The notes under the pieces: model-generated | The model's database searches: none | Seen by the model: the letters and a program-made list of their open reading frames with translations, nothing else | What the model was told of the DNA's origin: nothing | Shown here: positions 2,209-17,892 of the stretch, in pieces | Numbering within the stretch: the first letter of the stretch is position 1 | Layout of the letters: the number at the start of each line of letters is the position of its first letter | Origin: an uncultured Bacteroidales bacterium | GTDB lineage: Bacteria; Bacteroidota; Bacteroidia; Bacteroidales; Muribaculaceae | DNA: 64,000 nucleotides | Direction of reading: 5' to 3' | NCBI GenBank assembly: GCA_902792435.1 | Contig: CADAZN010000005.1 | Span: forward strand, 49,165 to 113,164 | Translations under genes and position numbers: made by a program

Positions 2209-4998
2209 TTAGTTTCCTAACAAGATGTTGTAAACAACGGTCACATCGCCTGCGGTGATGCTGCCATCACCGTTTTGATCAGCGTTGACAACGCCCGTGT
2301 AGTCATCATTGAGCAGGATGTTGTAGAGCAAGGTGACATCGGCACTTGTGACCACTCCATCGCCGTCAACGTCGCCAGGCACGGCCACCACAGGGGGCTC
2401 TGTAACCACGTCGATGAGTTTGTAGCAGTTGACGTAGTTGCCCACAGTGCCTTCGATGGAGCCATGTTTTGCTTCGACCATGATCAAGTAGCGCCCAGGC
2501 TCGAAGTCGATGCGACTGGAGATGTTGATAGTTTTCTCTTCGCCTGCGGCAATCGTCTGGTTACCCATGTAGAGGATTCCGCCGTTAGTAAGTGTGTACT
2601 GACGCATGCGCACATAGACATATCCGCTGTGGGCTGTGGGTGCGCTGAGAGTTACGGAGCCCACTAGTCTCTCACCCTTGACCACATAGCCAGGCAGGTC
2701 AAATGAAACGGCATTGAGGAAGATGTTGTCGGCCTCACCCACCGTGATAACGAGAGGATATACGTCGTTGTTGGGGTCGAGAGTTATTTCCCCATCATCG
2801 GTCACATAGCTGATTACCACCTTATAGTTACCGGGATCAACTGGCAACTTGCGGTAGAATGTGAAATTCTTGGCCTCGCCGCGCTCTACCGTGCCATTGC
2901 TCTGCTGGTAAATATAGCTCTTCGAAGGGTCGTTAACGTCAACCAGATTAAGGATTACACCCACATTGCCTGCAGCGCCATAATTGCGGGCATTGAGCGC
3001 GAAGTAGATGTTATCGCCTTGATTGATGAAATCTTGCGAGTCGGCGCGACGCCACTGGACAGCGGTCGTGAGACGCATCACTGGCGTTGTGGCAGCAGGC
3101 AACACATTGACGATGCCGTCGCCTTGAGTCTGCTCAAAAGGATATTGCTCAAAACCTTTCTCAAAGGCCTTGAGACGATACTCGCCTTGTGGCATATTCT
3201 CGTCAAGATTCACAAGCAGTGACACATTCTCCTCAACTGCATCATAAACATTGAGCTCGTTTTCATAGTCGAAATACTGGCTTTCATCGTCGGTGCTTGT
3301 GAAACGCACAACGATGTTGCGCAAGCGCACGTCGGGACTGTTGTTGCGCAGGTGCAAGTTAAAAAGTGCGGAGCCAGCTGCATAGACCTCGCCTTGAGGC
3401 TCAAGTGGTGATAGCAGAGTTACATCGGGATGCGAGCAGCTGTCGTCGAGAGTGAGAATGCGGCCACCAGCCACCTGAGTAGTGAAGAAGCCTACATAGG
3501 GATTGTTGCGGCTGTCGCGGCCACGACAATATCGCATAAGCTGCCATGGCGACTGGCTGTCCTCGCGAAATGCCATCCACACTGTGGCCTCACCATCGGG
3601 GATGTCATTGCCTACTTGCTTGGGAATGTCGTAAATCGACGCCATTGCAAGAAGGCCGGTGTGACCATTGGCAAAACCCGCGATATTGCGCTGCTCGGTT
3701 TTAAGCACCTTCAGAATCTGACCATCTCGCACCAAAGCCACGCCCAAATCGCCCGTGAAAGGCTTGGTGTCGAAATTCTCAACGGTAATCATCACGTTGA
3801 AGTCATTGGCGCTTTGAGTTATCAGTCGCATGCTGAGCGAGTTGTAGAGCGGGCGTTCATAGGTTGTGCCACTCGCAGGAGGCTGAATGCCTGTTATTAT
3901 CTCTTGATCGACATTATAGCCACCAGTTCCGCCGCCAATGCCAAGGTCATCGGGATCGAGATGGCTAACAAGGAAGTAGCCATTGCTGGTTCCGTACCAT
4001 CCCCAATTGATGTGAACGAAACCTTCGCTGTCATATCCGTCGCACACAAAGGCATGGCCGCTGCTGCCCACGTCGCTGGAGGCCGCATAATAAACTGGGC
4101 GGCCTGCATCGAGTTCGCTCTTGATGAGTTGCAACCACTCAGTGCTGCTGTAATAGTCTCGCTTGCGCATGGTTGTCGCTGGATCATAGCAGAAGTACTC
4201 ACGCAGTGCATTGGGCACCTCCATCGAGTGAGCGCCACTGCCTGCGGGCTGATATTCCATGTTTACCGCAACACCAAAATGGGCGGCAAGCGTAGCAACT
4301 GCATTGGCTTGAGCTGTGGTGTAGTTAACATCGTCGTAGGTTGGAAGCATGTTGTTCCAGTCGTAGGTGGTGTTGCCAAAATCGGCTGTCACACTTTGGC
4401 CATTGACGGTAATGGTCTTGCTGCCCACGCCATGCTCGGGATAGCTGTGATAGCGCATTATCTGAGTGGCGGCAGTTGCCACGCAGCCCACATAATAGTG
4501 GGTGCCTCCGTCGTAGGTTGGGCACATATTATTATAAGGAGCGCCCTGCCCCCACAGGATGTCGCCAAGCAAAGGAGCGACAACGGGAGTGCCCTGAGAA
4601 ACCTGTCGCTCTACCCCTTGGCGGCTGGCGCATGCCTTGACATACAGTTCGTTGAGCTCAATCCACTGACGCAAATTGTCGGGCATATTGTCATAACTGA
4701 AAGAGCCTTCAGTTGAATATCCTAAAATGGGCTCAGCTGCATCATCGCCGGCAACAATTATAAAACCATGGCCATTGGCACGGTTGAACACATAGAGCGG
4801 CGCATTGTCATCCTGCGACACTGTGCCCATGCGGGCAACACGATGCCATTGGGCTGATTGTGGCTGCGAAACTGCCGATTGAGCAAAACGAGTGGCTACC
4901 GCTTCGGCCTTAGTCCAATCAATAGGACTACCCCAAGCCGACATTGCCACTGCAGCCAGCATCGCTAAAGTCATAAACAAATGCTTCAAGTTTTTCAT
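2209..4998 (-). CDS. Secreted C10 (streptopain-like) cysteine protease with C-terminal dockerin-like module
   Basis: Encodes 929 residues. Signal peptide residues 1-23 (MKNLKHLFMTLAMLAAVAMS). An inhibitory-type prodomain follows (about 25-140, VFNRANGHGFIIVAGDD), then the C10 catalytic domain. The catalytic Cys is C172 in YVGCVATAATQIMRYH, the catalytic His is H315 in SSGHAFVCDGY, and the conserved Trp region is HINWGWYGTSNGYF. After the protease come several beta-sandwich-like repeats (about 400-860) and a dockerin type I-like tail (GDVDGDGVVTSADVTLLYN, then ADQNGDGSITAGDVT). The start at 4998 is chosen because it begins the signal peptide; the upstream Mets run into the promoter (TATATTTG at 5052-5059). 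It probably degrades extracellular protein; streptopain-family enzymes are made as zymogens. Confidence 0.93.
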   Translation of the reverse strand: MKNLKHLFMTLAMLAAVAMSAWGSPIDWTKAEAVATRFAQSAVSQPQSAQWHRVARMGTVSQDDNAPLYVFNRANGHGFIIVAGDDAAEPILGYSTEGSFSYDNMPDNLRQWIELNELYVKACASRQGVERQVSQGTPVVAPLLGDILWGQGAPYNNMCPTYDGGTHYYVGCVATAATQIMRYHSYPEHGVGSKTITVNGQSVTADFGNTTYDWNNMLPTYDDVNYTTAQANAVATLAAHFGVAVNMEYQPAGSGAHSMEVPNALREYFCYDPATTMRKRDYYSSTEWLQLIKSELDAGRPVYYAASSDVGSSGHAFVCDGYDSEGFVHINWGWYGTSNGYFLVSHLDPDDLGIGGGTGGYNVDQEIITGIQPPASGTTYERPLYNSLSMRLITQSANDFNVMITVENFDTKPFTGDLGVALVRDGQILKVLKTEQRNIAGFANGHTGLLAMASIYDIPKQVGNDIPDGEATVWMAFREDSQSPWQLMRYCRGRDSRNNPYVGFFTTQVAGGRILTLDDSCSHPDVTLLSPLEPQGEVYAAGSALFNLHLRNNSPDVRLRNIVVRFTSTDDESQYFDYENELNVYDAVEENVSLLVNLDENMPQGEYRLKAFEKGFEQYPFEQTQGDGIVNVLPAATTPVMRLTTAVQWRRADSQDFINQGDNIYFALNARNYGAAGNVGVILNLVDVNDPSKSYIYQQSNGTVERGEAKNFTFYRKLPVDPGNYKVVISYVTDDGEITLDPNNDVYPLVITVGEADNIFLNAVSFDLPGYVVKGERLVGSVTLSAPTAHSGYVYVRMRQYTLTNGGILYMGNQTIAAGEEKTINISSRIDFEPGRYLIMVEAKHGSIEGTVGNYVNCYKLIDVVTEPPVVAVPGDVDGDGVVTSADVTLLYNILLNDDYTGVVNADQNGDGSITAGDVTVVYNILLGN

Positions 4999-5051
4999 AA
5001 TATGTTTTTTAGTTACTAAATATGCTTTATCAATTACGGGCCAATAAACCG

Positions 5052-5059
5052 CAAATATA
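5052..5059 (-). promoter_or_regulatory. -7 promoter box of the C10 protease gene
   Basis: The minus strand reads TATATTTG, a perfect TAnnTTTG box, about 54 nt upstream of the ATG at 4998. Confidence 0.6.
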
Positions 5060-5130
5060 ATAAACATTTCGAGAAACACCAATTTGCACCCAGAAAAAAG
5101 TATGAACTCAGTGAATCACTAACAACAAAT

Positions 5131-5500
5131 TGAGCGAATTAGCGAAAGATGGACTCACTTGACTCACTTGACTCACTTGACTCACCTGACTCAGTTGACT
5201 CAGTTGGGTCGCGCTGCGCGCGAAAAATTATTGCCCTGCGGGCTAAAATTGGTAGTGTGGTGCCTACGGCACTAATATTTATTTTTGCGCTGACGCGCTA
5301 AGATGTCACTGTAAATGGAATCGGTGGAATCACCGGAATCAGTGGAATCAGTCAACCTATTCCAGGAATATGAGTGGATAGGAGTTGCTAAGAACAACTA
5401 GGAGTTACCAGAAACTACAAGGGGTTGAATGTCAAAGAACGCTTTACCATAGTGGCGAAGCAAATATATTGCATTATTAATAATAGACACAAGATTAAAA
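5131..5500. repeat. Dispersed composite intergenic element, copy A
   Basis: This is the gene-free interval between the C10 protease and the PH-like gene. From left to right: AAAGATGGACTCA; a 9-bp tandem array (TTGACTCAC, about six imperfect units, 5151-5209); short hairpins with three- or four-base loops at about 5211-5303 (GCCC-TGC-GGGC, GTGCC-TAC-GGCAC, GCGC-TGAC-GCGC); a second 9-bp array of GGAATCAGT units (about 5317-5352); and a conserved right end containing TGTCAAAGAACGCTTTA (5429-5445). Copies B (17893-18200) and C (53044-53830) share parts of this order. No transposase and no convincing ORF. Confidence 0.7.
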
Positions 5501-5568
5501 CACAAGAACACCGCACCTGCGATACAGGGTGCAGTGTTCTTGTAGTGTGTGATGTTAATGGGAAGGTG

Positions 5569-5841
5569 TCAGCTCAGGAGGCGAGCAATTGCCTTGGCAT
5601 CGCCATGGCTAAAGCCGTTGGCGACAATCACTTGGCCACCGTTGGTCTCAATGATAATATCGGCAAAAAGCAGATGCTTGTCAATTGACACGCTACCAAT
5701 AGCTGCGAAACGAATCTTCTTCTCCTCATAGCCAATCACCTTAGCCTTGCGGTAAATAAAGAACTCGTCGGTAATGATAATCTTGTCGGGGAAGACGGCA
5801 TTGCCGCCCGTCACCCTGCTCGCTGAAAATTCGTAATGCAT
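5569..5841 (-). CDS. Small PH-like domain protein (hypothetical)
   Basis: Encodes 90 residues with an alternating beta pattern (KIIITDEFFIYRKAKVIGYE, then KIRFAAIGSVSIDKHLLFAD and IIIETNGGQVIVANGF) that closes with a helix (HGDAKAIARLLS). That layout, several strands followed by one C-terminal helix, resembles small bacterial PH-like domains (bPH/YokE type). This is inference from the pattern only. No signal peptide, so probably cytoplasmic. Its start is 14 bp after the stop of the neighbouring 337-aa gene, so the two are probably co-transcribed. Confidence 0.65.
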   Translation of the reverse strand: MHYEFSASRVTGGNAVFPDKIIITDEFFIYRKAKVIGYEEKKIRFAAIGSVSIDKHLLFADIIIETNGGQVIVANGFSHGDAKAIARLLS

Positions 5842-5855
5842 AGTTAAAAATTGTA

Positions 5856-6869
5856 TTATTGTTTTGGGATAGTCACTTTTTTATCTGTTTTTTCAAAGGT
5901 TATATATTCTCCATCTTTGTAAAGAATTCTAAAGCTATCACGACTTTCTTTAAGGACAAATTGCCAAGCAAAGAACTCTTTAAAAAATGGAATAAGATTC
6001 TCGGCTTGTTGCTCAATAACAGGATACATCTTTGTGTTGACATCTTTAGGGCTATAATTACAATAAACTATTTTTGTAATATTATTGTTATTCATACTAA
6101 ATGCCATGTAATTATACCGACTATCGTTAAATATTGAATAAGAGCCCGAAGCCTTTACTCCATAAATATTTTTAATGTCTCCCTCTTTTGGAATCTTTTC
6201 TTTTGCTATTTCGGCAAAGAATTTTTCTGTTTTAACATCCTCTTCTGTTTTAAATGTTTGTGAAAGCAATATCGCCTCAAAGGTTTCGTTTTTCTCATCA
6301 AATGTGATTTCCAAAGTATACCCACCAATATTCGTCACCCAAGTTCCACCTGGGAAAATTTTAGTTTCCACATAACTAGGCAGGCCCGAAACACGAAGCC
6401 ATGTTGTCTCAATCCATTCTGTGGCATTTCCAAAAATATCATAAGTGGTTTCTCCCTCGATCAATTTGTTTCCACGCAAAAAAACTGTCACATAATTATT
6501 AGGATAACAATCATGATCAAAAGAGAAAGACAGTCCACTTCTAAAAGGCTCAGCTTCCATTATTTGTGAAATATGTCCATTGTCATGGCAGAACAATTGT
6601 CCATAATAAGATCCGCCTTCCCTTTTAATTACCAGATATCGCTCAAAACCAGCTTTGTCCTTATCAACAAGTTGCCATGTCCCCACAAATCCACCTTTAT
6701 TCGTAGCCTTGCTTTTGTTGGCTTTTCTATTCTTCTTAGTGTTTTTGGCGTAAAGTTGTTCTTGAGTATCATTTGAATAACTTCCCAAGAGCAGTCCATC
6801 ATAAGCCTTTGTATCAAAACCAAATAAAAGGACTGCTAATAACAATGTAAATAAAAGAGTCTTTTTCAT
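5856..6869 (-). CDS. Exported protein of unknown function
   Basis: Encodes 337 residues. Residues 1-22 are a signal peptide (MKKTLLFTLLLAVLLFGFDT). A basic low-complexity linker follows (KNTKKNRKANKSKATNKGG), then GTWQLVDKDKAGFERYLVIK, typical of a lipocalin-like or DUF-type beta-barrel start (FxGTWxLV). A second similar beta-rich unit follows, beginning FPGGTWVTNIGGYTLEITFD, so the protein may hold two related barrels. The base composition is AT-rich compared with the genes left of 5 kb, as in the rest of 5.8-12.5 kb. I do not recognise a specific family. Confidence 0.75.
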   Translation of the reverse strand: MKKTLLFTLLLAVLLFGFDTKAYDGLLLGSYSNDTQEQLYAKNTKKNRKANKSKATNKGGFVGTWQLVDKDKAGFERYLVIKREGGSYYGQLFCHDNGHISQIMEAEPFRSGLSFSFDHDCYPNNYVTVFLRGNKLIEGETTYDIFGNATEWIETTWLRVSGLPSYVETKIFPGGTWVTNIGGYTLEITFDEKNETFEAILLSQTFKTEEDVKTEKFFAEIAKEKIPKEGDIKNIYGVKASGSYSIFNDSRYNYMAFSMNNNNITKIVYCNYSPKDVNTKMYPVIEQQAENLIPFFKEFFAWQFVLKESRDSFRILYKDGEYITFEKTDKKVTIPKQ

Positions 6870-6941
6870 TTTTAAACGTTGGTGTGTTAGGATTAAAAAT
6901 TAAATTATATATAATAAAATACGGAAGATTCCTAGCAAATG

Positions 6942-7697
6942 CTAATCATCATCTTTATTTTCGGTTTTCTCCTTATTAATTTCGTCCATAAAACCAGCTG
7001 TAATTATACCAGAAGGCAAAGCGATAATAGCAATACCCACAAGTGATGAAAGAATACTAATTACACGTCCTGTGGTAGAAATGGGGAAAATATCACCATA
7101 ACCAACAGTAGTAAGAGTACAAGCCGACCAATAAAACGCATCAAAAAAAGTTGCAAATAAATAATCTCCATCATTAGGATTTATTTGCTGCTCGGCATTA
7201 AACATGATAAGAGCCGTAACAAACATATAGAACAAGGCCAGAGCAAAGACAGTGGCAAGAATTACACGCTGCTTCTTGATAACTGTCATAATAATACGTA
7301 ATGGTTCGAAATAGCGTATAACTTTAACCATACGTACAATTTTCAAGAGTCGGATAATCCTTGTTAGCTTGAATGCGTCCTTTACAAAATTGAATGTAGG
7401 AAGAATTGATAGTAAATCGATAATAGCTATTATAGTGAATGGATAAACGACAAATGCCCAAGCTCCTCGTTTCGGGTTTCGATAATCGGCAGTAATCCAT
7501 CTCAAAATGTAGTCAAGAATAAACAGACCGCAAGGTATAACATCAAAATAGTAAAACAAAGTTGATTGCTCGCGAAACATAAGAGGTATTGTTGCTACAA
7601 GGATAGCTATTAGCATTACCCAATCATACATTTTAGCCAATATAGTGTTATTATAATTAGGCTCTATGATTTGAAAAATTTTCTCTCTGATTTTCAT
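6942..7697 (-). CDS. Voltage-gated-type potassium channel (6-TM ion transport protein)
   Basis: Encodes 251 residues. Several hydrophobic helices are visible (MLIAILVATIPLMF, YFDVIPCGLFILDYILRW, AFVVYPFTIIAIIDLLSIL, VFALALFYMFVTALIMF, ISILSSLVGIAIIALPSGII). A basic helix (FKLTRIIRLLKIVRMVKVIR) has the spaced Arg/Lys of an S4 voltage sensor. The selectivity filter TLTTVGYGDIFP lies near residues 195-205. This is the Ion_trans/KvAP-like layout, so it should conduct K+ across the inner membrane. It stands alone: the terminator at 7799-7848 separates it from the upstream operon, so it is probably not part of the peptide cluster. Confidence 0.92.
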   Translation of the reverse strand: MKIREKIFQIIEPNYNNTILAKMYDWVMLIAILVATIPLMFREQSTLFYYFDVIPCGLFILDYILRWITADYRNPKRGAWAFVVYPFTIIAIIDLLSILPTFNFVKDAFKLTRIIRLLKIVRMVKVIRYFEPLRIIMTVIKKQRVILATVFALALFYMFVTALIMFNAEQQINPNDGDYLFATFFDAFYWSACTLTTVGYGDIFPISTTGRVISILSSLVGIAIIALPSGIITAGFMDEINKEKTENKDDD

Positions 7698-7798
7698 TAT
7701 CTAATTGTTCGTTTTTTGTACTATGTGTTATTGTTATACCCTTCTCACTTAAATGATTTAACAATCAACATGAATTACTAACTTTGAACTTCTTACCT

Positions 7799-7848
7799 AA
7801 AAAAATGTCCTCTAAAGAGCAACAACAAAGAGCACTCTTTAGAGGACA
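7799..7848 (-). terminator. Strong terminator closing the peptide-modification operon
   Basis: A perfect 14-bp stem (TGTCCTCTAAAGAG at 7806-7819 with CTCTTTAGAGGACA at 7835-7848) is followed, on the minus strand, by seven U. It lies just after the stop of the gene ending at 7862. Confidence 0.9.
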
Positions 7849-7861
7849 ACACCCTAAAAGA

Positions 7862-8338
7862 TTAAGTAGTGTACAAGATAGTATCTTCAACTCCTTCGGT
7901 TCTGCGAATAGCATCTGTGAGCTCTCGTAATGTGCCATCAGTAGTAACTTCAAGTATAATATCGGCACGATTCTCGAAGAAATAACCAGCATAGACGATG
8001 TTATACTTATCAGAAGCCGCTAAGTTCTTTAACGTTTGCTCATGCATGCCACGCTCGGCTTTCACGAGAACGATAAATAGCTCCTGGCCAGCAGGCATTT
8101 TCTCTGTAGGTTGCACAACCACATCAACAGGAATCAGCTGAAGGTCAAGAATACCTTCAAAATCTTGAATTGCACTCACTTTCTTCACATTTTCCTCTGT
8201 CATTTTCAGGACTGTGTAGAAATCGGACAATTGAGCAAGCCTAGACATAATTGGGTTGCCAAACACCTCATTAATCTTGTCGTAGACAACATCTTCAAAT
8301 CCAGCACGCGGATTTACTTGTAAAATAAGTTTAATCAT
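7862..8338 (-). CDS. Two-module Lrp/AsnC-effector-like (RAM-like) protein
   Basis: Encodes 158 residues that look like two alpha-beta units of the Lrp/AsnC ligand-binding (RAM, ferredoxin-like) type. Unit 1 is about residues 1-75 (MIKLILQVNPRAGFEDVVYD ... FYTVLKMTEE). Unit 2 is about 85-158 (ELFIVLVKAERGMHEQTLKN ... ADIILEVTTDG, then ELTDAIRRTEGVEDTILYTT). No DNA-binding helix-turn-helix precedes either unit. Stand-alone RAM domains often bind small ligands or regulate oligomers. It is the last gene before the operon terminator, 118 bp after the AAA+ gene, so a role in the peptide cluster is plausible but unproven. The family call is by pattern. Confidence 0.65.
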   Translation of the reverse strand: MIKLILQVNPRAGFEDVVYDKINEVFGNPIMSRLAQLSDFYTVLKMTEENVKKVSAIQDFEGILDLQLIPVDVVVQPTEKMPAGQELFIVLVKAERGMHEQTLKNLAASDKYNIVYAGYFFENRADIILEVTTDGTLRELTDAIRRTEGVEDTILYTT

Positions 8339-8456
8339 AACTGAAATAATTTAAAAATTAAAACTAAAATATACTTAACTCTTAAATGTTTTCTGAAATA
8401 TCGCAATAAGAGATAGATCATCAAATCTTTAATCAACTCTATTTCAAGGTGAGTAA

Positions 8457-9329
8457 TCATGAAAAACCAATGGATTTTCTTCTCTCTCCATTTAGAACGT
8501 CGAGTTGTTGTGCCAAATTATCATATTTGGCACGAAAAACTTTCATTTCGGCAGCATTGTTTTTATGAATGAAATCCATGATGCAATTGGTATTAATATT
8601 ACATTTTGAAAGCGCGCTTTGAAGGGCAGCATTTTCTACTACATTTAATATATTAGCAACCGTAAAATTCTCGCTAGCTTCAACAATTTGATCGTAGTCA
8701 ATCTTTTCAACAGGACGCCCTTTCAAACTCTGTTGAAATATAAAACCACGCATATCTTCATCAGGGAATGGAAGATAAAACAATTCGTTTAGATACCCTG
8801 AATATCCAATTTGTGCATCGGTATCTTGTGGGCGGGATGTTGTTGCTATAAAAAGAATATTTCTTTCATAGCCTTGTTTTATTAAGTCCAAAATATTAGC
8901 AACATCCAAACGCGAGGAGCCATTCTTTACCGTGTCACGGTTGGGTAAGATAGTCTCAACATTTTCTAAAACAATTGTACCAGATAGCTTTGCCGCCATT
9001 TCAATAAGACATGCAAAACTACAGCTCAACACTTTATTTTCATCCCTCAACAACCTGTGCCGGTTCACAATTATATATGGCCTGTTCAGCATTTGAGCAA
9101 AAGATTTAGCTATAAACGTTTTTCCTTGCCCAGGAGCACTAAACAATAATAATCCTAAAGGGCGTTTCAGTAAATATGGATTGTTTCCCTCATATTCTTG
9201 CAATGGAAACATTATTTTCTCCTTAAACCGCTCAAATATTGTATTGGAGTGGAAGAGCGCCTTTTGGCATTCCTCGAATGGAGGTTCAAAGAAATCATAA
9301 GATCCATATTTCTGTTCTAAATCAATCAT
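8457..9329 (-). CDS. AAA+ family ATPase with atypical Walker B, in the peptide-modification operon
   Basis: Encodes 290 residues. Walker A is SAPGQGKT (residues 64-71). The predicted Walker B is TIVLENVE (118-125), where the usual Asp-Glu is Glu-Asn. Sensor-1 region is IATTSRP (161-167). A C-terminal helical lid contains NILNVVENAALQSALSK. The architecture is that of a single-module CDC48/FtsH-like AAA+ protein without a protease domain. It overlaps the preceding GNAT gene by 4 bp (start 9329, GNAT stop 9326), so translation is coupled. It may remodel or unfold the modified peptide or the maturase; the Walker B change raises the possibility that it binds ATP but hydrolyses it poorly. Function inferred. 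Confidence 0.82.
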   Translation of the reverse strand: MIDLEQKYGSYDFFEPPFEECQKALFHSNTIFERFKEKIMFPLQEYEGNNPYLLKRPLGLLLFSAPGQGKTFIAKSFAQMLNRPYIIVNRHRLLRDENKVLSCSFACLIEMAAKLSGTIVLENVETILPNRDTVKNGSSRLDVANILDLIKQGYERNILFIATTSRPQDTDAQIGYSGYLNELFYLPFPDEDMRGFIFQQSLKGRPVEKIDYDQIVEASENFTVANILNVVENAALQSALSKCNINTNCIMDFIHKNNAAEMKVFRAKYDNLAQQLDVLNGERRKSIGFS

Positions 9330-9823
9330 ATGCCTGCCCTAGATTTAATTGTTCTGACGAACTCGTTATCAAATTGTTCAGATGTCAATGTGCTATCAAA
9401 ATGATTCTCATCCTGGGCTTTCAGCTCAAATCCCATGCATTTAGTGGTCTTGAATGCTCTTGTGTTGAAAGCAAAAGAACCACTGCGTATTATAGCATTA
9501 GGATAATAATTGAAAAAATGGTTTATAAAAGCCACACCAGAGTAAATGCCATACCCACGATTCTGAATCTTAGTAGGAACGAAACCAGCAATAGAGTAAG
9601 TCTTATCATGATTTTGAGAGAACTTAGCCATAGCTATCTTTCTCTTGACACCATTATGTTCTAACACACATACATATTTAGCTTCATATTTCCAAGGAAG
9701 AAAATATCCTAATACTCTACGCTTATCGTCAAACATGAAACGTTGAATAGACTTGTCGGTGACAATCTGAAATTGAAACCAAAAATCTCTATACCAATGA
9801 TATGGTCTTACTAACGTCTTCAT
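9326..9823 (-). CDS. GNAT-like N-acetyltransferase, second copy in the peptide operon
   Basis: Encodes 165 residues. The acetyl-CoA-binding motif A is visible as IQNRGYGIYSGVAFINHFF (about 106-124; Q-N-R-G-Y-G). A late motif-B-like segment, AFNTRAFKTTKCMGFEL, ends in the typical GF. No signal peptide. It overlaps both neighbours by 4 bp, so it is certainly part of this operon. GNAT enzymes move an acetyl (or other acyl) group from CoA to an amine; a target in this operon would be the N-terminus or a Lys of the precursor peptide, which is inference. Confidence 0.8.
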   Translation of the reverse strand: MKTLVRPYHWYRDFWFQFQIVTDKSIQRFMFDDKRRVLGYFLPWKYEAKYVCVLEHNGVKRKIAMAKFSQNHDKTYSIAGFVPTKIQNRGYGIYSGVAFINHFFNYYPNAIIRSGSFAFNTRAFKTTKCMGFELKAQDENHFDSTLTSEQFDNEFVRTIKSRAGI

Positions 9824-10335
9824 ATTGTCTTAAGTAATCGGATTGGCACAGGAGATGTATAAAAATCCTCTTTTGTGAGTCTCAGCTTGTTAAATAGTCG
9901 AACGTCGTAATGCATTTGACCGATAACATGAAACCCCATAGACATGTTCATTTTCATTGAACGTCTATTATTCTCATAAATAGCACAATGGAGCTCAGTA
10001 CAACTTGTTGACTTGAAATAATTATCCAAAGCAAACACGTAACTGCGAATACTTGTTGCGCTATTATGAAAGTGCTTTATCATTCCACCAAAAACATCGG
10101 TCCATCCGCCTTTTCTTTTAATGAAATGACAAAAAGCAACAGGTTCTCCAGTCTTATCTAAAGACAGCACCCACTTGGTTTCACAATCATTTTGAGGGCA
10201 AACAAAGCGAAGGATCTGTTGGTCAGTCACAAAATCATCTGCTGAAAAACCACTATTCTCAATCCATTCAGGGTCACGCAGCATCGAAGCATAAAAGCCA
10301 ATGTCTTCAACTGTTGCTATATGAGCGCAAAACAT
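9820..10335 (-). CDS. GNAT-fold protein, first copy in the peptide operon, motif A degenerate
   Basis: Encodes 171 residues. It fits the GNAT plan: an N-terminal beta-alpha part (HIATVEDIGFYASMLRDPEW), central strands (WVLSLDKTGEPVAFCHFIKR) and a clear motif B (AIYENNRRSMKMNMSMGFHV). Where motif A should read Q/RxxGxG/A, the segment is HFHNSATSIRSYVF, so CoA binding may be altered or lost. The start is 7 bp after the radical SAM stop (10343). Two adjacent GNATs, one with a good and one with a poor CoA motif, may form a heteromer or act on different sites; this is inference. Confidence 0.75.
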   Translation of the reverse strand: MFCAHIATVEDIGFYASMLRDPEWIENSGFSADDFVTDQQILRFVCPQNDCETKWVLSLDKTGEPVAFCHFIKRKGGWTDVFGGMIKHFHNSATSIRSYVFALDNYFKSTSCTELHCAIYENNRRSMKMNMSMGFHVIGQMHYDVRLFNKLRLTKEDFYTSPVPIRLLKTI

Positions 10336-10342
10336 AGGTTAT

Positions 10343-11503
10343 TTAAACTTCAACATTCAGGTCTTTTAGCTCCTGTTCAATTGACTCTAATAGTGGAACG
10401 ATTTTTTCGATTGCCTCAAGTGTAGCCATTCTAGATTGCAGTTCTTCAACCGAAAGTGAATTGGTATCTTCTTTGCTGTTGACGATTCGGTCATATTCAT
10501 ACTTAGCAACTTCAAGAGTACGAACTTTCTCCAACTTGCACAAATTCATATCGCGACTGCCTATGCTACCACGCTCAATGTAATTTGCGCCATAGCAAGT
10601 TGGGCAAGTTGGATACAATGGGCATTTAGAGCACTCTTCTGAGATATATTCTTTGGGGTTAGCCCAGTCGATGTCGTGCCAAGCTTGTGATTTTTCTTTA
10701 CCGCAAACGTTCTCAAAGAACAAATGACATGGATATTGAGAACCATCAATGTTATAAGCCATCATCTCTACACCTGCCCCACACCAGCGGCGAGTACGCC
10801 CTTGCTCCGAAACAAGGATTGGAAAGCACAAATTGAAAATAGAATCCTTCTTTAAATCAGGATTCTCTTTATAGAATTTGGCGAGACGACGCAACTCTCG
10901 TTGGTAAACATGGACAAAATGTGGTGCGCTCCAGTCGACCATATAAGCCAAATTAACTAAGATGTTATGGAGGCCAACCGAATGAAGGAACATAACACCA
11001 TCAGCCAATGTCTCAATTGACTTGGGGCTGACAGTCATTTTGACACCTTGATTGGGCCAAGTTTTAGCAAAGAAATCAATATCAATAAGGTCAAACGAGT
11101 TTGATCTATTCATATTCTGCATTTCACGTGTTCCATCAAGACTTAACCCTGCTACGAAACGGTGACGATTCTCGTACAACCAGTCTTTTATCTCGCCATG
11201 AACCTTGGTGCCATTTGTCGTTGCAAAAAAGACATAGTGGGTCTTAAAATCCTGTGCCCATGTCCATTCACAAAGTTCTTTAATTTTTGAAAATACTAGA
11301 AACGGTTCACCTCCATGTAGATTGACAATTACCGACTCATCAGAAGGTGAACTAAGTTGTTCAAAGAGCTTCTGTTTTGTCTGTTCCACATCAAACTCGT
11401 CATTGCCAATCTTGTTTTCGTAGCAATATACACAACGCAGGTTGCAAGCAACATTTGTAGTAATATATATATTTTTCTTTGTTTGTTCTAGTTCCATTAT
11501 CAT
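10343..11503 (-). CDS. Radical SAM/SPASM peptide maturase
   Basis: Encodes 386 residues. The radical SAM cluster motif is CNLRCVYC (Cys 20, 24, 27), followed by NLHGGEP (61-67), the GGEP SAM-binding motif. The C-terminal SPASM domain is complete: Cys 241, 259, 267, then C-x2-C-x5-C-x2-C (291, 294, 300, 303) and Cys 322, able to hold two auxiliary 4Fe-4S clusters. A helical tail (ATLEAIEKIVPLLESIEQ) follows. SPASM enzymes install thioether or C-C links in ribosomal peptides or make formylglycine in sulfatases. Here the gene lies 79 bp after a Cys-repeat peptide gene and no sulfatase is nearby, so a RiPP maturase is the best reading. A second Met is at 11497. Confidence 0.9.
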   Translation of the reverse strand: MIMELEQTKKNIYITTNVACNLRCVYCYENKIGNDEFDVEQTKQKLFEQLSSPSDESVIVNLHGGEPFLVFSKIKELCEWTWAQDFKTHYVFFATTNGTKVHGEIKDWLYENRHRFVAGLSLDGTREMQNMNRSNSFDLIDIDFFAKTWPNQGVKMTVSPKSIETLADGVMFLHSVGLHNILVNLAYMVDWSAPHFVHVYQRELRRLAKFYKENPDLKKDSIFNLCFPILVSEQGRTRRWCGAGVEMMAYNIDGSQYPCHLFFENVCGKEKSQAWHDIDWANPKEYISEECSKCPLYPTCPTCYGANYIERGSIGSRDMNLCKLEKVRTLEVAKYEYDRIVNSKEDTNSLSVEELQSRMATLEAIEKIVPLLESIEQELKDLNVEV

Positions 11504-11525
11504 GAATATAGCTTATAACAAAACT

Positions 11526-11547
11526 AAGGGCATAATACTATGTCCTT
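11526..11547 (-). promoter_or_regulatory. Imperfect hairpin between precursor and maturase genes
   Basis: AAGGGCATA and TATGTCCTT form a 9-bp stem with one mismatch and a 4-base loop. On the minus strand it is followed by AGTTTTG. It could be a leaky terminator that keeps precursor mRNA above maturase mRNA, as is common in RiPP operons. Weak evidence. Confidence 0.35.
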
Positions 11548-11582
11548 AATGTTTTCTTCGTAAATCTCAATTTTATAAGTAA

Positions 11583-11762
11583 TTAAGATTTACCACAGCC
11601 TTCGCATCTGCCATCACATGTATCATCACATGAGCCCTCACAACTCCCACTGCAGGAACACGCATAGATACTAAAATCTTTTTGTTGTTCTATGGGCTGA
11701 ATTGAGGATAAACGAGTAGTAAACTCTTCTTTTTTATCTTGAATTTTTTTAAGATCAAACAT
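11583..11762 (-). CDS. Putative RiPP precursor peptide with CXXX-repeat core
   Basis: A 59-residue ORF, below common length cut-offs. The leader-like part (1-34, MFDLKKIQDKKEEFTTRLSS then IQPIEQQKDFSIYA) is charged and helical. The tail packs seven Cys into 22 residues at 35, 37, 41, 45, 49, 53 and 56: CSCSGSCEGSCDDTCDG then RCEGCGKS. Five of the cysteines (37-53) are exactly four apart (CXXX repeat). No signal peptide, so a disulfide-rich secreted toxin is less likely. It is directly upstream of a SPASM radical SAM gene on the same strand. Families called CXXX-repeat peptides with radical SAM maturases are known from Bacteroidales; whether this belongs to them needs a profile search. Likely modification: thioether links from Cys (inference). 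Confidence 0.8.
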   Translation of the reverse strand: MFDLKKIQDKKEEFTTRLSSIQPIEQQKDFSIYACSCSGSCEGSCDDTCDGRCEGCGKS

Positions 11763-11812
11763 GATTATTGTTTATAATTTCGATGATAAAGAAAAACTAA
11801 AAAATAAACCAT

Positions 11813-11880
11813 AGTGTCCACTAAAAAACATGACCAAGCAAAAAGCTATAAAATGCGACCCTTGCTTTTTAGTGAACACT
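11813..11880. promoter_or_regulatory. Long hairpin between the 95-aa gene and the precursor gene
   Basis: AGTGTCCACTAAAAA pairs with TTTTTAGTGAACACT (one mismatch) around a loop of about 35 nt. Inside, AAAAAGC and GCTTTTT offer an alternative pairing. On the minus strand it follows the stop of the 95-aa gene by 15 nt and is trailed by a U-rich stretch (TTTATTTTTTAG), so it may be that gene's terminator, or the structured leader of the precursor mRNA. Confidence 0.5.
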
Positions 11881-11895
11881 CTAAAGAATTAGGAA

Positions 11896-12183
11896 TTAAT
11901 AATTTTGAAATAATTTCCTTCCTTTTTTAGCTTCTATTTTGGCTCTTCTCTCTTCTAATGTAAGATGTTTCTTTTTTCCGATTTTCGTACCTGAATTTTT
12001 TTCAAGACCTGCAACGAAGTCTTCTAGCAGGACATTACCCACTTTTTTTGAGGTTTTCTTTACACTACGACCAGCTGCGTGTTTCAATCCATTATAAGTA
12101 CCCCTTTTTGTTACTTTTCTAGCTTCAACAGCATTTGGCATAGCTATAGCAATAGCCGCTAAAATCAATAATAATTTTTTCAT
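11896..12183 (-). CDS. Small basic exported protein (hypothetical)
   Basis: Encodes 95 residues. Residues 1-21 are a signal peptide (MKKLLLILAAIAIAMPNAVE). The mature part is strongly basic (KVTKRGTYNGLKHAAGRSVK, KIGKKKHLTLEERRAKIEAK) and without Cys. It has its own -7 box at 12239-12246 and a possible terminator at 11813-11880. It lies just upstream of the peptide operon on the same strand, but the shared context may be accidental. Family not recognised. Confidence 0.65.
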   Translation of the reverse strand: MKKLLLILAAIAIAMPNAVEARKVTKRGTYNGLKHAAGRSVKKTSKKVGNVLLEDFVAGLEKNSGTKIGKKKHLTLEERRAKIEAKKGRKLFQNY

Positions 12184-12238
12184 TTTTCTTAAAGTTTTAG
12201 TTAGTAAATATTATTAAAATCACATTTTTTAGTTTGCA

Positions 12239-12246
12239 CAAAATTA
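12239..12246 (-). promoter_or_regulatory. -7 promoter box of the 95-aa gene
   Basis: The minus strand reads TAATTTTG, a perfect TAnnTTTG box 56 nt before the ATG. Confidence 0.6.
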
Positions 12247-12267
12247 AACAAAAAAACAAATCGAAAA

Positions 12268-12285
12268 TAATTCAAATTGGGTCAA
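12268..12285. promoter_or_regulatory. Putative operator, left copy
   Basis: TAATTCAAATTGGGTCAA, identical over 18 bp to the copy at 12446-12463. Within it TCAA occurs twice, 10 bp apart (one helical turn), as in direct-repeat operators. The two copies lie in the 362-bp divergent gap between the 95-aa gene and the HTH gene. Otherwise that gap holds only the two promoters and AT-rich sequence. Confidence 0.5.
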
Positions 12286-12445
12286 GTTTTGAATATGGTA
12301 AATTGAATTGATTTGAACAGATTTGGTAGGATATTTGGGGGGAGGTTGTTATGAAAAATGATGGAAAAAATCACAAATTTTAAGTTTCGGAGCTTTTTTG
12401 GCTTTGAAGTTATGCTTTCGATTTTTAATAGAAACTAGAACGGTT

Positions 12446-12463
12446 TAATTCAAATTGGGTCAA
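12446..12463. promoter_or_regulatory. Putative operator, right copy
   Basis: Exact 18-bp copy of 12268-12285, in the same orientation. It lies 67 bp upstream of the -7 box of the HTH gene, a usual distance for an activator site. Confidence 0.5.
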
Positions 12464-12530
12464 TTTGTATCAGGATTGCTAGTTTTTTGTATTATTATTG
12501 TGGTGGTGGGGAAAAATGTTTAACTTTGCA

Positions 12531-12538
12531 AATAATAT
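12531..12538 (+). promoter_or_regulatory. -7 promoter box of the HTH gene
   Basis: TAACTTTG, a perfect box whose last G is 8 nt before the ATG at 12546, so the mRNA would be nearly leaderless. I see no good -33 element at the usual distance, which fits activator dependence. Confidence 0.6.
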
Positions 12539-12545
12539 TCAATTT

Positions 12546-13124
12546 ATGAGTGATAAAGATAAATATGTAAAACTGCTGACTGGCGATGTGGAAGAACGCC
12601 TTGGTCGTGGCATGCTTTCGCCCAAAGATTTTGAGTACCTTCATGGCATAATAGCTTCGGAACTTAATGAGAGTGTGAGCGTGTCGACACTGAAGCGCCT
12701 GTGGGGATATTCGAAGTATCTGTCGAGCCCCAGCGTGAGCATTTTATCGATCCTTTGCCGTCTAGTGGGCTATCGCGACTGGGAAGACTACAGGGCAAAT
12801 CGTGAAAAAGAAGATAATGCTCCTAGCGCTATTGTGCTGAATGACAAGATAACTGTTGCTACCGACCTTGAGGAGGGTGACCGCATCAGGCTCACATGGG
12901 CGCCACAGCGAGTGTGCGACGTGATGTACCACGGTGATGGCGATTTTGAAGTGCTAGCATCGCAAAACACTGGCATCAAGGCTGGTGACTGGTTTTGCTG
13001 CAGCCTTATTGTGAGCGGCGAGCCTTTGTGGCTTAGCAACTTGCGCCAGTATGGAAAAGCTCCCGTGGCCTATGTGTGCGGAAAGCAGGGAGGAGTACGG
13101 TTTCAGTTAATGCATAATTCATAA
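12546..13124 (+). CDS. HTH-type putative DNA-binding protein of the kinase locus
   Basis: Encodes 192 residues. Residues 1-75 are helical and contain LSPKDFEYLHGIIASELNES then VSVSTLKRLWGYSKYLSSPS, a pattern I associate with Bacteroidales helix-turn-helix-like proteins (VSxSTLKRLWGY). The C-terminal half is a small beta-rich domain (GDRIRLTWAPQRVCDVMYHG, DGDFEVLASQNTGIKAGDWF). The Met at 12546 is chosen over 12498 and 12516 because the promoter box at 12531-12538 lies between them. It precedes the Ser/Thr kinase gene by 61 bp and is probably its partner or regulator. Confidence 0.75.
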   Translation: MSDKDKYVKLLTGDVEERLGRGMLSPKDFEYLHGIIASELNESVSVSTLKRLWGYSKYLSSPSVSILSILCRLVGYRDWEDYRANREKEDNAPSAIVLNDKITVATDLEEGDRIRLTWAPQRVCDVMYHGDGDFEVLASQNTGIKAGDWFCCSLIVSGEPLWLSNLRQYGKAPVAYVCGKQGGVRFQLMHNS

Positions 13125-13185
13125 TGCACAATTTTCAGTTTTCAGTTCTCAGTTTTGGTTTTTGATTTGTATAATTTGTGACGTT

Positions 13186-14520
13186 TTGAGCGAGAATAGT
13201 AGCATACATGACAGCCAGGTGTCGGGTATTGTTCCCGATGACTATGAGGGCATTGAGTCGCAGTTCACTCAGGTGAGTGAGTTGCCGTCGCTAGGCCATT
13301 GCCGCCTGATGAAGGCTATGCGCTATGGCCGCTGGCATGTGCTCAAGGGGCTGAAAGCAGAGTATGCCGCTGACCCCACTCACACACAGCGCTTGCGCAA
13401 GGAACTGGAAATGATGATGAAGCTGTCGCATGCTGGCATCCTGCAGGTGCATGGCATGGAGAAGGGCTGTAAGGATGCCGAGGTGGGCATGGACACATTT
13501 ATTGTGATGGAATGGGTCGACGGCTTGACACTTGGAGAGTGGCTTGCCACAGGTCCTAGCCTAAGTCAGCGCCAGCGAGTGGCCGATGAGATGCTCGATG
13601 CCACGAGCTACATGCACCGCCAGGGTGTGGTTCACCGCGACCTAAAGCCCGAGAACATCATGATAACGCGCAACGGAGCTAACGTGAAGATTATAGACTT
13701 TGGGCTTGCCGACAATGACCAGTACGCCGTGTTTAAGAATCCTGCTGGTACCGAGCAATATATCGCTCCTGAGCAATTAAACTCTAATGTTGCCGACTCG
13801 CGCAACGACATCTACAGCCTGGGCATAGTGTTGAACCTCATGCACATGGGCAGCATCTATAAAAGAGTGGTTAGGAAATGCCTGATGCCCATTAGTGCTC
13901 GCTATCAGAGTGTGGATGAGATAAGGGAGGATCTTGAGCGAAGCAAGCGCCGGCGCCGGCTGGCTCGCATCGCCGGCTTTGCGATTGCGGTGTCGCTCGT
14001 GATTGCGAGCATCTTGCTTGGACTGGGATATGCGGGGCGTCAGAAACTTGAGAATCCTTCGGGGAACTTCACATTTCGCGACAGCAATGATTTTGTCCAC
14101 ACCAATTGGGATAATGTTACATCAACTCTAACTTCGGTGCAATATGCAGGTGGGAATAAAGCAAATGTAAGGCTCAGGTCAGACTACCGCTTTAACGGTA
14201 ACACTTGGATAAGTGGCGAACTTGGGTTCGGTTGTTTTCGCAACATGGATAAACTTGAAAATGTGACGCTTGACCCTCCAAGTTTTGGCATACAAAAAAA
14301 CTCCTTCAAGGGTTGTAAGAGCCTTAAAAGCATCACTATGCCTAATATCATTCATCCTCCACACATTGGCAACGGCGGCTGGGTGACGGTGATTGACTCA
14401 ATTTTTGAACCGTACCATTTTGACCGCGTTACGCTCTATGTGCCTGAGCCCGAGATGTTGCGCAACGATGCCTCATGGCGCAAGTTCAAGCACATTGAGC
14501 CTTATCAGCCAAAGCAATAG
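13186..14520 (+). CDS. Transmembrane Ser/Thr protein kinase with BspA-like LRR ectodomain
   Basis: About 444 residues. The kinase domain (about 20-245) shows the lysine region WHVLKGLK, the helix-C glutamate region RKELEMMMKLSH, the catalytic loop VVHRDLKPENIM, DFG (KIIDFGLADN) and GTEQYIAPEQ. The glycine loop is poor. A basic stretch (RSKRRRRLARIAG) and one TM helix (FAIAVSLVIASILLGLGYAG) follow. The outside part ends in LRR_5-like repeats (CFRNMDKLENVTL, FKGCKSLKSITM). It is thus a receptor-like kinase: surface sensor, cytoplasmic phosphotransfer. No ATG exists at the N-terminus; TTG at 13186 or 13162 are candidates, and 13186 gives MSENSSIHDS. Confidence 0.88.
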   Translation: MSENSSIHDSQVSGIVPDDYEGIESQFTQVSELPSLGHCRLMKAMRYGRWHVLKGLKAEYAADPTHTQRLRKELEMMMKLSHAGILQVHGMEKGCKDAEVGMDTFIVMEWVDGLTLGEWLATGPSLSQRQRVADEMLDATSYMHRQGVVHRDLKPENIMITRNGANVKIIDFGLADNDQYAVFKNPAGTEQYIAPEQLNSNVADSRNDIYSLGIVLNLMHMGSIYKRVVRKCLMPISARYQSVDEIREDLERSKRRRRLARIAGFAIAVSLVIASILLGLGYAGRQKLENPSGNFTFRDSNDFVHTNWDNVTSTLTSVQYAGGNKANVRLRSDYRFNGNTWISGELGFGCFRNMDKLENVTLDPPSFGIQKNSFKGCKSLKSITMPNIIHPPHIGNGGWVTVIDSIFEPYHFDRVTLYVPEPEMLRNDASWRKFKHIEPYQPKQ

Positions 14521-14566
14521 AGTTTTCAGTTGTCAGTTTTCAGTAGTCAGTTTTTCATACCCCCTA

Positions 14567-14587
14567 CCCCCTCTATCTTAGAGGGGG
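14567..14587. repeat. CCCCCT/AGGGGG palindrome, copy 1
   Basis: CCCCCTCTA, loop TCT, TAGAGGGGG: a perfect 9-bp stem. Copies lie at 45225-45245 and 61451-61466, each preceded by a further C-rich run (ATACCCCCTA-like). It sits between the converging kinase and miaA genes and could act as a bidirectional terminator. Confidence 0.75.
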
Positions 14588-14612
14588 AGTTGATTTTGGT
14601 GTAGTAAACTTT

Positions 14613-15518
14613 TTATTTCAGGTTGTTTTTAATGCTGAGGACGGCGGCGATGAAGTCGTCGTTGGGCATATCGTATGGAAGCCAATGGATGTGGGTGCCT
14701 CGACGTTCCATGCCTCGGAACCAAGTCATCTGGCGCTTGGCGAACTGATGGATGGCCGTTTCGAGCTGTGTGAACATCTCGTCGTAAGTGAGCTGCCCGA
14801 TGACGTGCAGAGTGATGAATTTGTATTCTAAGCCGTAATAGATTAAGTCTTCGGGGGCTACCCCACCCTCAATTAAGCGTCGCACCTCGTCGACCATACC
14901 GGCCTCGAGACGCGCTTTTAAGCGCTCGGTGATGCGGTTGCGGCGTGTGTCGCGGTCGATGTCGACACCGATGACCACTGCATCGGTAAGCGGATGTGGC
15001 TCGGTCTGTGCTTTGAGGTGCGGATTGTCGTGGTAGTACATAGCAATCTCAATGGCGCGGATAGCACGTTTGCAGGTGTCGATATCGCTGTTGTTGCGCA
15101 ACGTTTTGTAACGCTTGAGGATGACGGTGAGTTCGTCTAGGCTCTTAGTGCTCAATTCCTGGCGCAATTCACAGTTCTCGGGCACAGGCGGCAGCGCAAT
15201 GCCCTTGACTACACTCTCGACGTACATTCCCGTGCCTCCACACAGAATGACCGGTTTGCCCCGGCTCGTTATGTCGTCGTAGCAAGCCTGATAGTCGCGC
15301 AAGTACTCGTAGAGGTTGTATTTGTAGCCCGCATCGCAGATGTCAATCATGTGGTAAGGCACGCTGCCATACTCGTCGAGATCCTTACCAGTGCCCAGGT
15401 CCATGCCACGGTAGAGCTGGCGAGAGTCGGCGCTGATGATTTCGCCGCCTATCGCCTGGGCAAGGGCTACTGCCTTGCCTGTCTTGCCTGAAGCTGTGGG
15501 ACCGGTTATTACTATCAT
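14613..15518 (-). CDS. miaA: tRNA dimethylallyltransferase
   Basis: Encodes 301 residues. The P-loop is ITGPTASGKTGKAVALAQ (about 4-21), followed by the substrate-binding IISADSRQLYRGMDLGTGKD and YHMIDICDAGYKYNLYEY. Further along are VILCGGTGMYVESVVKG and the C-terminal QFAKRQMTWFRGM. MiaA moves a dimethylallyl group to N6 of A37 in tRNAs that read UNN codons. The Met at 15518 is preferred: the extra residues from 15593 or 15554 are encoded by a degenerate repeat (GAGTTAAGAGTGGAGAGTG on the plus strand), which is not typical of the family. Confidence 0.96.
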   Translation of the reverse strand: MIVITGPTASGKTGKAVALAQAIGGEIISADSRQLYRGMDLGTGKDLDEYGSVPYHMIDICDAGYKYNLYEYLRDYQACYDDITSRGKPVILCGGTGMYVESVVKGIALPPVPENCELRQELSTKSLDELTVILKRYKTLRNNSDIDTCKRAIRAIEIAMYYHDNPHLKAQTEPHPLTDAVVIGVDIDRDTRRNRITERLKARLEAGMVDEVRRLIEGGVAPEDLIYYGLEYKFITLHVIGQLTYDEMFTQLETAIHQFAKRQMTWFRGMERRGTHIHWLPYDMPNDDFIAAVLSIKNNLK

Positions 15519-15622
15519 AGAGTTATGAGTTAAGAGTGGAGAGTGAGAGTTCATAGTTATGTTCTCTAGATAAACTAGATTCACTAGAAACACTAGATAT
15601 TATAGAAACTACTGAAAACTGA

Positions 15623-17800: not shown

Positions 17801-17829
17801 ATGGTTTGTTGGTTTTTAGTTTTCTGCTA

Positions 17830-17837: not shown

Positions 17838-17892
17838 GTGTAAGTCGAGTGAAATACAAAATTTATTTAAGTATTTCCTAGACATCGCCTCG

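What the first reader, a model, noticed from the sequence alone, without database searches (positions are those of the whole stretch)
7862..11762. Compact peptide-modification operon: Cys-repeat precursor, radical SAM/SPASM enzyme, two GNATs, AAA+ ATPase, RAM-like protein
Seen: six minus-strand genes, three junctions overlapping or within 7 bp, closed by a strong terminator at 7799-7848. Known: SPASM radical SAM enzymes next to small Cys-rich peptides are usual for RiPPs. Unusual: the added pair of GNAT-like proteins and an AAA+ ATPase of the CDC48/FtsH sort, and no obvious transporter or peptidase. The product may act inside the cell or leave by a general exporter. Base composition is AT-rich, which suggests transfer.
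Basis: partly seen in the sequence, partly recalled or inferred. Interest (0 to 1): 0.88.

Follow-up and report, generated by a model that had tools for sequence, protein, structure and literature searches.

The report
Cys-repeat peptide operon with pseudo-ATPase
A gut bacterium carries a small operon that very likely cross-links and then acylates a short cysteine-repeat peptide, a known kind of natural-product pathway, but here with an unusual extra protein that resembles a molecular motor whose key engine residues are replaced.

Summary
The six minus-strand genes exist as described. The core is real: a 59-aa CxxxC-repeat precursor, a SPASM radical SAM enzyme and a GNAT. Three other genomes of the same family keep precursor, enzyme and GNAT in the same order. 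The enzyme is nearest to PapB and CXXX-repeat maturases but far below both curated cut-offs (125.7 of 340 and 118.1 of 350 bits), as are eight relatives of its branch that were scored: an uncurated Bacteroidales branch of a known kind. The six-gene set was not found elsewhere. The RAM-like protein was found only in the window's own genome (1 of 297 family, 1 of 295 order genomes). The AAA+ protein is a stand-alone relative of the C-terminal domain of common kinase-AAA fusions. It keeps the P-loop but has lost the Walker B DE, the sensor-1 Asn and both Arg fingers; 16 aligned relatives keep these except one second finger: a pseudo-AAA. One of the two GNATs lacks the CoA-loop glycines. Best reading: radical cross-linking of Cys (probably to acidic residues), then N-acylation, with the pseudo-AAA as nucleotide-bound scaffold. 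A new variant of a known kind.

The parts
11583..11762 (-). precursor peptide, 59 aa; leader MFDL..KKEE.. and a core with Cys at 35, 37, 41, 45, 49, 53, 56
   Evidence: relatives in L020, L021, L022 at the same place; TIGR04114 16.2 bits of 20, TIGR04118 15.6 of 35
11504..11582 (-). intergenic stretch with a weak hairpin and short T-run, possible attenuator letting more precursor than enzyme be made
   Evidence: fold -11.9 kcal/mol, no shuffle control; hairpins at the same place in L020, L021, L022
10343..11503 (-). radical SAM/SPASM peptide maturase, 386 aa (CxxxCxxC = CNLRCVYC; further Cys invariant in four sequences at 241, 259, 267, 291, 294, 300, 303, 322)
   Evidence: tree
9820..10335 (-). 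GNAT-1, 171 aa, CoA loop degenerate (GxG replaced by AxS)
   Evidence: Pfam Acetyltransf_3 E 0.0041, 18.2 bits of 25.4; alignment
9326..9823 (-). GNAT-2, 165 aa, CoA loop intact (QNRGYG); closest to the single GNAT of relatives
   Evidence: phmmer; no Pfam match; AlphaFold model pLDDT 80.1 and PDB GNAT matches
8457..9329 (-). stand-alone pseudo-AAA, 290 aa: P-loop kept; Walker B EN, sensor-1 S, Arg-finger positions Y and Y
7862..8338 (-). RAM-like protein, 158 aa, predicted tandem ferredoxin-like fold; operon membership uncertain
   Evidence: no relatives
7799..7848 (-). terminator hairpin closing the operon
   Evidence: fold -27.0 kcal/mol for the 76-nt stretch 7790-7865
11813..11880 (-). strong hairpin between the 95-aa gene and the precursor (terminator of the upstream gene or leader hairpin)
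   Evidence: fold -26.4 kcal/mol for 11785-11890; full copy once in the own genome

Best explanation
This is a RiPP operon of an uncurated Bacteroidales branch of the PapB/CXXX-repeat maturases. Shown: precursor, rSAM and GNAT are kept together in four genomes. Inferred: the rSAM enzyme binds the leader, abstracts a hydrogen from a core residue and closes Cys thioethers, most likely onto Asp/Glu (six of the seven core Cys have an acidic residue within CX0-CX6, the range PapB accepts). After leader removal by a peptidase encoded outside the operon, GNAT-2 acylates the product, most likely at the new N-terminal amine, because the cores of L020 and L021 have no Lys. GNAT-1 is a degenerate helper subunit. 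The AAA protein binds but does not hydrolyse ATP and acts as a nucleotide-loaded scaffold or holding chaperone for the peptide or enzymes; the RAM-like protein, if it belongs, binds a small ligand or the peptide as sensor or carrier.
For: rSAM nearest families PapB 125.7 bits and TIGR04115 118.1 bits. Precursor-rSAM-GNAT order in L020 (59% rSAM identity), L021 (54%), L022 (50%). Leader similarity: L020 10 of 24 ungapped identities, 0 of 20000 shuffles as good; L021 8 of 24, 50 of 20000. Acidic acceptors and Lys counts. PapB accepts CXnD with n 0-6 (PMC9413430, abstract and passages). A GNAT follows the rSAM in two other branches, L032 and L111 (tree). GN2 model matches GNATs, among them a lasso-peptide acetyltransferase, 9iy3, at rank 19. 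Pseudo-AAA motifs against 16 relatives. ATGA overlaps of GNAT-1, GNAT-2 and AAA.
Against: rSAM and precursor miss every curated cut-off. Leader similarity to L022 and L020b is not beyond shuffles (2374 and 808 of 20000), and leader-only phmmer is weak (best E 0.044). AAA and RAM-like occur with this core only here, so their part in the pathway rests on position alone. The CX3[DE] spacing of PapA is absent. No exporter was recognised near the operon; the nearest peptidases, C10 at 2209-5082 and DPP-IV type at 15623-17800, look like separate genes. No selection test was possible for the pseudo-AAA, with one copy known. That it does not hydrolyse ATP is inferred from motifs only.
Confidence: 0.55

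Rival explanations
1. The GNATs are self-protection rather than tailoring: they acetylate the finished peptide (or its target) inside the producer to keep it harmless, as the acetyltransferase MccE does for microcin C (recalled).
For: GNAT genes lie directly after the rSAM in four genomes and in two other branches; no other immunity gene or exporter was recognised in the operon, so an active product would sit in the cytoplasm.
Against: GNAT coupling to the maturase by touching or overlapping genes suggests joint stoichiometry; nothing shows that the product is toxic.
Confidence: 0.25
2. The product is not secreted but is an intracellular signal or regulator; AAA and RAM-like are its receptors, part of the kinase/AAA signalling islands of Bacteroidales.
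For: AAA is kin to kinase-AAA fusion proteins. L111 holds a Cys peptide, rSAM, GNAT and a kinase-AAA fusion in one locus. L091 holds an AAA protein, M48 peptidase, rSAM and Cys peptide on one strand. A protein kinase gene lies near the window operon, on the other strand (13162-14520).
Against: Controls: AAA in 3 of 23 rSAM loci against 0 of 20 random loci; kinase in 3 of 23 against 1 of 20, and those 3 are the very loci that supplied kinase seeds; rSAM in 1 of 25 kinase-AAA loci, the one that drew my attention. No clear association. Among matches of the AAA in the own genome there is only FtsH (named by sequence), no kinase-AAA.
Confidence: 0.2
3. Only precursor, rSAM and GNAT-2 are functional; GNAT-1 and AAA are decaying passengers, and RAM-like is an unrelated neighbour. 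(The confidences of these rivals overlap with one another and with the best explanation; they are not exclusive.)
For: No orthologue of AAA or RAM-like beside the core in L020, L021, L022; RAM-like in no other genome searched; degenerate motifs in GNAT-1 and AAA; 118-nt gap before RAM-like.
Against: AAA is a 290-aa intact frame at 36% GC, overlapping GNAT-2, with its P-loop kept while four other catalytic positions are changed: not the pattern expected of random decay.
Confidence: 0.25

Closest known systems
PapB/PapA ranthipeptide (freyrasin) system, NF047865
   Same: SPASM radical SAM enzyme as best-scoring family; small precursor with an N-terminal leader and a Cys- and acid-rich core
   Different: 125.7 bits of a 340-bit cut-off; core is CxxxC repeats without the CX3[DE] spacing; GNAT and AAA genes present
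CXXX-repeat target radical SAM maturase, TIGR04115, with TIGR04114 peptide
   Same: Cys at every fourth position; second-best family for the enzyme
   Different: 118.1 bits of 350; precursor 16.2 bits of 20; the one annotated plasmid member seen (L082) is a 728-aa enzyme near ABC transporter and LanKC genes
GNAT-tailored RiPPs: lasso-peptide acetyltransferase (PDB 9iy3, title), nostolysamides (start of abstract), selidamides (term count only)
   Same: GNAT-fold or acyl-group tailoring of a ribosomal peptide
   Different: to my knowledge (recalled) those are not radical-SAM Cys-repeat peptides; here the acylated site is unknown
Bacteroidales kinase-AAA fusion proteins (about 600 aa)
   Same: C-terminal Cdc48-like AAA domain is the closest relative of the window AAA in the family and order searches
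   Different: they have a kinase half and intact catalytic motifs; the window protein has neither

Membership tests
radical SAM/SPASM RiPP operon (general kind) | CxxxCxxC radical SAM motif plus SPASM-like Cys cluster, beside a small precursor conserved in relatives | tested here: met
radical SAM/SPASM RiPP operon (general kind) | modified product detected | not testable with these tools
   needs expression and mass spectrometry
PapB family (NF047865) | score above curated cut-off 340 bits | tested here: not met
   125.7 bits; of ten relatives scanned, nine have PapB as best family at 115.8-145.1 bits
PapB family (NF047865) | substrate with CX3D/E motifs | tested here: not met
   no core Cys of the window peptide is followed by Asp/Glu at CX3; acids lie at other CXn spacings (sequence; counts)
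CXXX-repeat maturase (TIGR04115) | score above 350 bits | tested here: not met
   118.1 bits
CXXX-repeat peptide (TIGR04114) | score above 20 bits | tested here: not met
   16.2 bits; the spacing itself is present
anaerobic sulfatase maturase | score near cut-off 349.45 bits | tested here: not met
   40.9 bits
active AAA+ ATPase | Walker A P-loop | tested here: met
   SAPGQGKT
active AAA+ ATPase | Walker B Asp-Glu, sensor-1 Asn, Arg fingers | tested here: not met
   EN, S, Y, Y in the window; kept in 16 of 16 relatives except one second Arg
GNAT (GNAT-2) | GNAT fold and Q/RxxGxG/A loop (motif recalled) | tested here: met
   model and Foldseek; QNRGYG
GNAT (GNAT-1) | Q/RxxGxG/A loop (motif recalled) | tested here: not met
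   HNSATS at that place
Lrp/AsnC RAM domain | beta-alpha-beta-beta-alpha-beta fold with family sequence match | tested here: inconclusive
   tandem fold in a low-confidence model, pLDDT 62; Foldseek best hits monooxygenase-type, Lrp at ranks 13-14; no match above cut-off in Pfam (NapD 13.3 bits of 28) and only E 0.61 in the PDB

The most novel reading that the evidence does not exclude
A RiPP assembly line organised around a dedicated pseudo-AAA: an AAA protein derived from a kinase-AAA signalling protein that has given up hydrolysis and serves as an ATP-charged scaffold or receptor for a radical-cross-linked, N-acylated Cys-repeat peptide that acts inside the producing cell.
Probability: 0.12. 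Interest if true: 0.8.

Novelty: new variant of a known kind. Interest (0 to 1): 0.5.

Why it matters
It points to a branch of Bacteroidales peptide maturases that curated models miss (the nine branch members scored, window included, reach at most 145.1 of 340 bits) and to a repeated maturase-GNAT pairing that could give doubly modified peptides in gut bacteria. The pseudo-AAA, with P-loop kept and four other catalytic positions changed, inside a peptide operon, is unusual as far as I recall, and gives a cheap direct test of whether an ATPase domain has become a scaffold.

Tried and rejected
RAM-like relatives: none in viral contigs, none in plasmids at E 0.01, none in 297 family and 295 order genomes except the own. 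AAA relatives in viral contigs: none; in plasmids 67 records at about 22-26% identity in the ten rows listed, not read. rSAM in viral contigs: three loci at 25-26%, not read; in plasmids 41 and in phage records 45, of which I read three, H1, H2 and H26. Of 40 loci from the capped genome-contig scan I read four, L037-L040. Regulatory RNA at 4500-15000: no Rfam match at E 0.5. tRNA integration site: the only tRNA in the window is at 1994-2067. Mobile-element reading of the hairpin upstream of the precursor: one full copy and one 79% match of 35 bases elsewhere in the own genome: not a repeated element. PADLOC matches (IetA E 6e-11 for AAA, pVip E 1.3e-12 for rSAM) I take as domain-level likeness and did not follow.

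Literature: no paper holds 'CXXX repeat', 'radical SAM' and 'GNAT' together; none holds TIGR04115, TIGR04114, rSAM_Cxxx or 'CXXX repeat peptide'; Muribacul with RiPP and radical SAM gives two papers, of which PMC10352776 was seen as passages only and has 0 occurrences of 'acetyltransferase' and 'cys-rich' in its main text. PMC8326336 and PMC9413430 were also seen as passages only. Such absences cover only the held open library.

An association of these rSAM loci with kinases or AAA proteins in general was tested and not shown. That count took 23 of the 24 rSAM regions whose neighbourhood I had read (L039 left out), and 25 of 61 listed kinase-AAA places. Its GNAT threshold misses L032, which was seen by eye and later confirmed by Pfam. 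Kinase and AAA seeds came partly from the tested loci. L027 and L028 are near-copies, so the 23 are not fully independent; the random loci are somewhat shorter in all (334 against 366 kb). The FHA label that I gave one L020 gene has no Pfam support.
Full report
Observation. The six genes are present as described. Precursor 11583-11762, rSAM 10343-11503, GNAT-1 9820-10335, GNAT-2 9326-9823, AAA 8457-9329, RAM-like 7862-8338, all on the minus strand, followed by a strong terminator hairpin. GNAT-1, GNAT-2 and AAA are joined by ATGA overlaps; RAM-like follows after 118 nt and may have its own start.

The maturase. In NCBIfam the rSAM protein scores best with PapB ranthipeptide maturases (125.7 bits, cut-off 340) and CXXX-repeat maturases (118.1, cut-off 350); sulfatase maturase gets 40.9. 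Ten relatives scanned give the same picture: L020, L021, L022, L023, L091, L081, L027 and L039 lead with PapB at 115.8-145.1 bits; so does the second, more distant enzyme of L020 (123.5), while the L111 enzyme leads with CcpM (185.6 of 500; it also reaches 154.6 of 300 for TIGR04148). In the PDB the nearest sequence is 5wgg (E 1.1e-11), which I recall as CteB. The window's enzyme thus belongs to a distinct, uncurated branch.

Distribution. Of 297 sampled genomes of the family, 13 including the own have a relative at E 1e-30; of 101 in the genus, 2 including the own; of 295 in the order, 5 including the own at E 1e-50 with the four-member profile.

The conserved core. L020, L021 and L022 have precursor, rSAM and one GNAT in the same order. 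Window, L020, L021 and L022 cores share a CxDTC stretch and a GCG tail. CxxxC pairs exceed most shuffles (378, 254, 65, 43 and 0 of 20000 as high for window, L020, L021, L022, L020b). Leaders resemble the window's clearly in L020 and L021, not beyond chance in L022 and L020b. The four rSAMs group together in the tree with modest support (85/42; 92/95 with L024). L020 and L021 also share, upstream, a phage-type integrase, a NusG-family protein and an M42 aminopeptidase; the window stretch 2500-19500 has no match to these. L081 has an M18 aminopeptidase; L027, L031 and L083 have a ClpP-like protein and an ABC transporter, L028 a ClpP-like stretch at its contig edge. So leader removal and export look different across the family and are not visible in the window's operon. 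Two peptidase genes lie further off in the window: a C10 peptidase with Spi inhibitor and dockerin domains at 2209-5082 and a DPP-IV-type peptidase at 15623-17800; nothing ties them to the operon, but they cannot be excluded as leader peptidases.

The GNATs. GNAT-2 is nearest to the relatives' single GNAT (E 3.4e-17, 6.6e-12, 6.5e-7 against 1.2e-7, 1.7e-5, 3.7e-5 for GNAT-1). Its model (pLDDT 80.1) matches GNATs in the PDB. GNAT-1 lacks the loop glycines. A GNAT directly after an rSAM also occurs in L032 (Pfam Acetyltransf_3 E 1.7e-21) and L111 (E 4.9e-14), on other branches; the tree needs three changes of that label and firmly supported branches force at least two, with L111 on a long branch. 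Of the four cores, those of L020 and L021 have no Lys, which points to the N-terminal amine as acceptor; this is inference.

The AAA protein. Its best PDB matches are Cdc48. In the family, 56 of 297 genomes including the own have a match at E 1e-15; apart from the own, the matches lie in frames of 491-675 residues. In the order 6 of 295 including the own match at E 1e-20. I aligned 16 of these proteins (11, 5). Pfam confirmed kinase plus AAA for one, L109; similarity to kinase seeds was found in 24 of 25 such genes. At Walker B, sensor 1 and the two Arg fingers the 16 read DE (16), N (16), R (16) and R (15); the window reads EN, S, Y, Y, while keeping GxGKT. I read this as a pseudo-AAA that may still bind ATP. 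The own genome's only other match is FtsH by its sequence, so a mixed ring with a kinase-AAA in the same cell is not supported, with the caution that the assembly is 93% complete.

The RAM-like protein. The single-sequence model, pLDDT 62, shows two ferredoxin-like halves, the second better (62-86 by block). Foldseek hits are weak: monooxygenase-type first (best E 7.7e-4), Lrp at ranks 13-14. No relative was found. RAM-like is a fair fold description but not a family assignment.

Wider context. L111 combines M48 peptidase, Cys peptide, rSAM, GNAT, a CbxX-like AAA (name recalled; Pfam AAA and AAA_lid_6) and a kinase-AAA. L091 combines AAA, M48, rSAM and Cys peptide on one strand; its M48 is kin to that of L111 (E 3.4e-48). 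These made a link between such peptides and AAA signalling attractive, but the control does not show it: AAA in 3 of 23 rSAM loci (one of them the window itself, a seed) against 0 of 20 random ones, kinases 3 of 23 (all three seed loci) against 1 of 20, and rSAM in 1 of 25 kinase-AAA loci.

Chemistry. PapB links Cys to Asp/Glu and accepts CXnD with n from 0 to 6 (PMC9413430, abstract and passages). In the window core six of seven Cys have at least one acid in that range. Cys-to-acid thioethers are therefore the first hypothesis, but the CX3 spacing of PapA is not present and another acceptor is possible.

Verdict. The finding is real and very probably a RiPP operon; kind known, branch uncurated, with an unusual pseudo-AAA and a degenerate second GNAT that I found only in this genome.

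Noticed in passing
window 11896-12183: 95-aa basic protein with a signal-peptide-like start directly upstream of the precursor, separated from it by a strong hairpin; no Pfam or NCBIfam match above cut-off.
   Followed up: partly
window 12268-12288 and 12446-12466: 21-nt direct repeat (95% identical, starts 178 nt apart) in the AT-rich intergenic region upstream of the 95-aa gene; possible regulator site.
   Followed up: no
window 12498-14520; L024:12609-14579; L140:6062-8043: A gene without Pfam match (STLKRLWGY-type motif, by eye) beside a Ser/Thr kinase gene recurs near two rSAM loci and in one random control locus.
   Followed up: partly
L020:535-8884: Downstream of the GNAT, same strand: PP2C phosphatase, a 1408-aa FtsW-like plus penicillin-binding-like fusion (by eye) and a Ser/Thr kinase.
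   Followed up: no
L111:3-10642: Locus with M48 peptidase, 68-aa Cys peptide, CcpM-like rSAM, GNAT, CbxX-like AAA, YbjN-like and kinase-AAA genes on one strand; may be a larger undescribed peptide or conflict system.
   Followed up: partly
L091:194-10319: rSAM, Cys-rich peptide and M48 peptidase with an AAA protein and GTPase-like genes (by eye; the one scanned has no Pfam match).
   Followed up: partly
L027, L028, L031, L083: Two rSAM genes flanking a Cys-rich peptide of the CKGTCRGTC type, with ClpP-like and ABC-transporter genes; L027, L028 and L083 also have a phage-type integrase in the fetched stretch.
   Followed up: partly
window 2209-5082: Large C10-family peptidase with Spi inhibitor and dockerin domains, same strand, about 2.8 kb beyond the operon end.
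   Followed up: partly
window 6942-7697: Voltage-gated ion-channel-like gene directly downstream of the operon terminator, same strand, also AT-rich.
   Followed up: no
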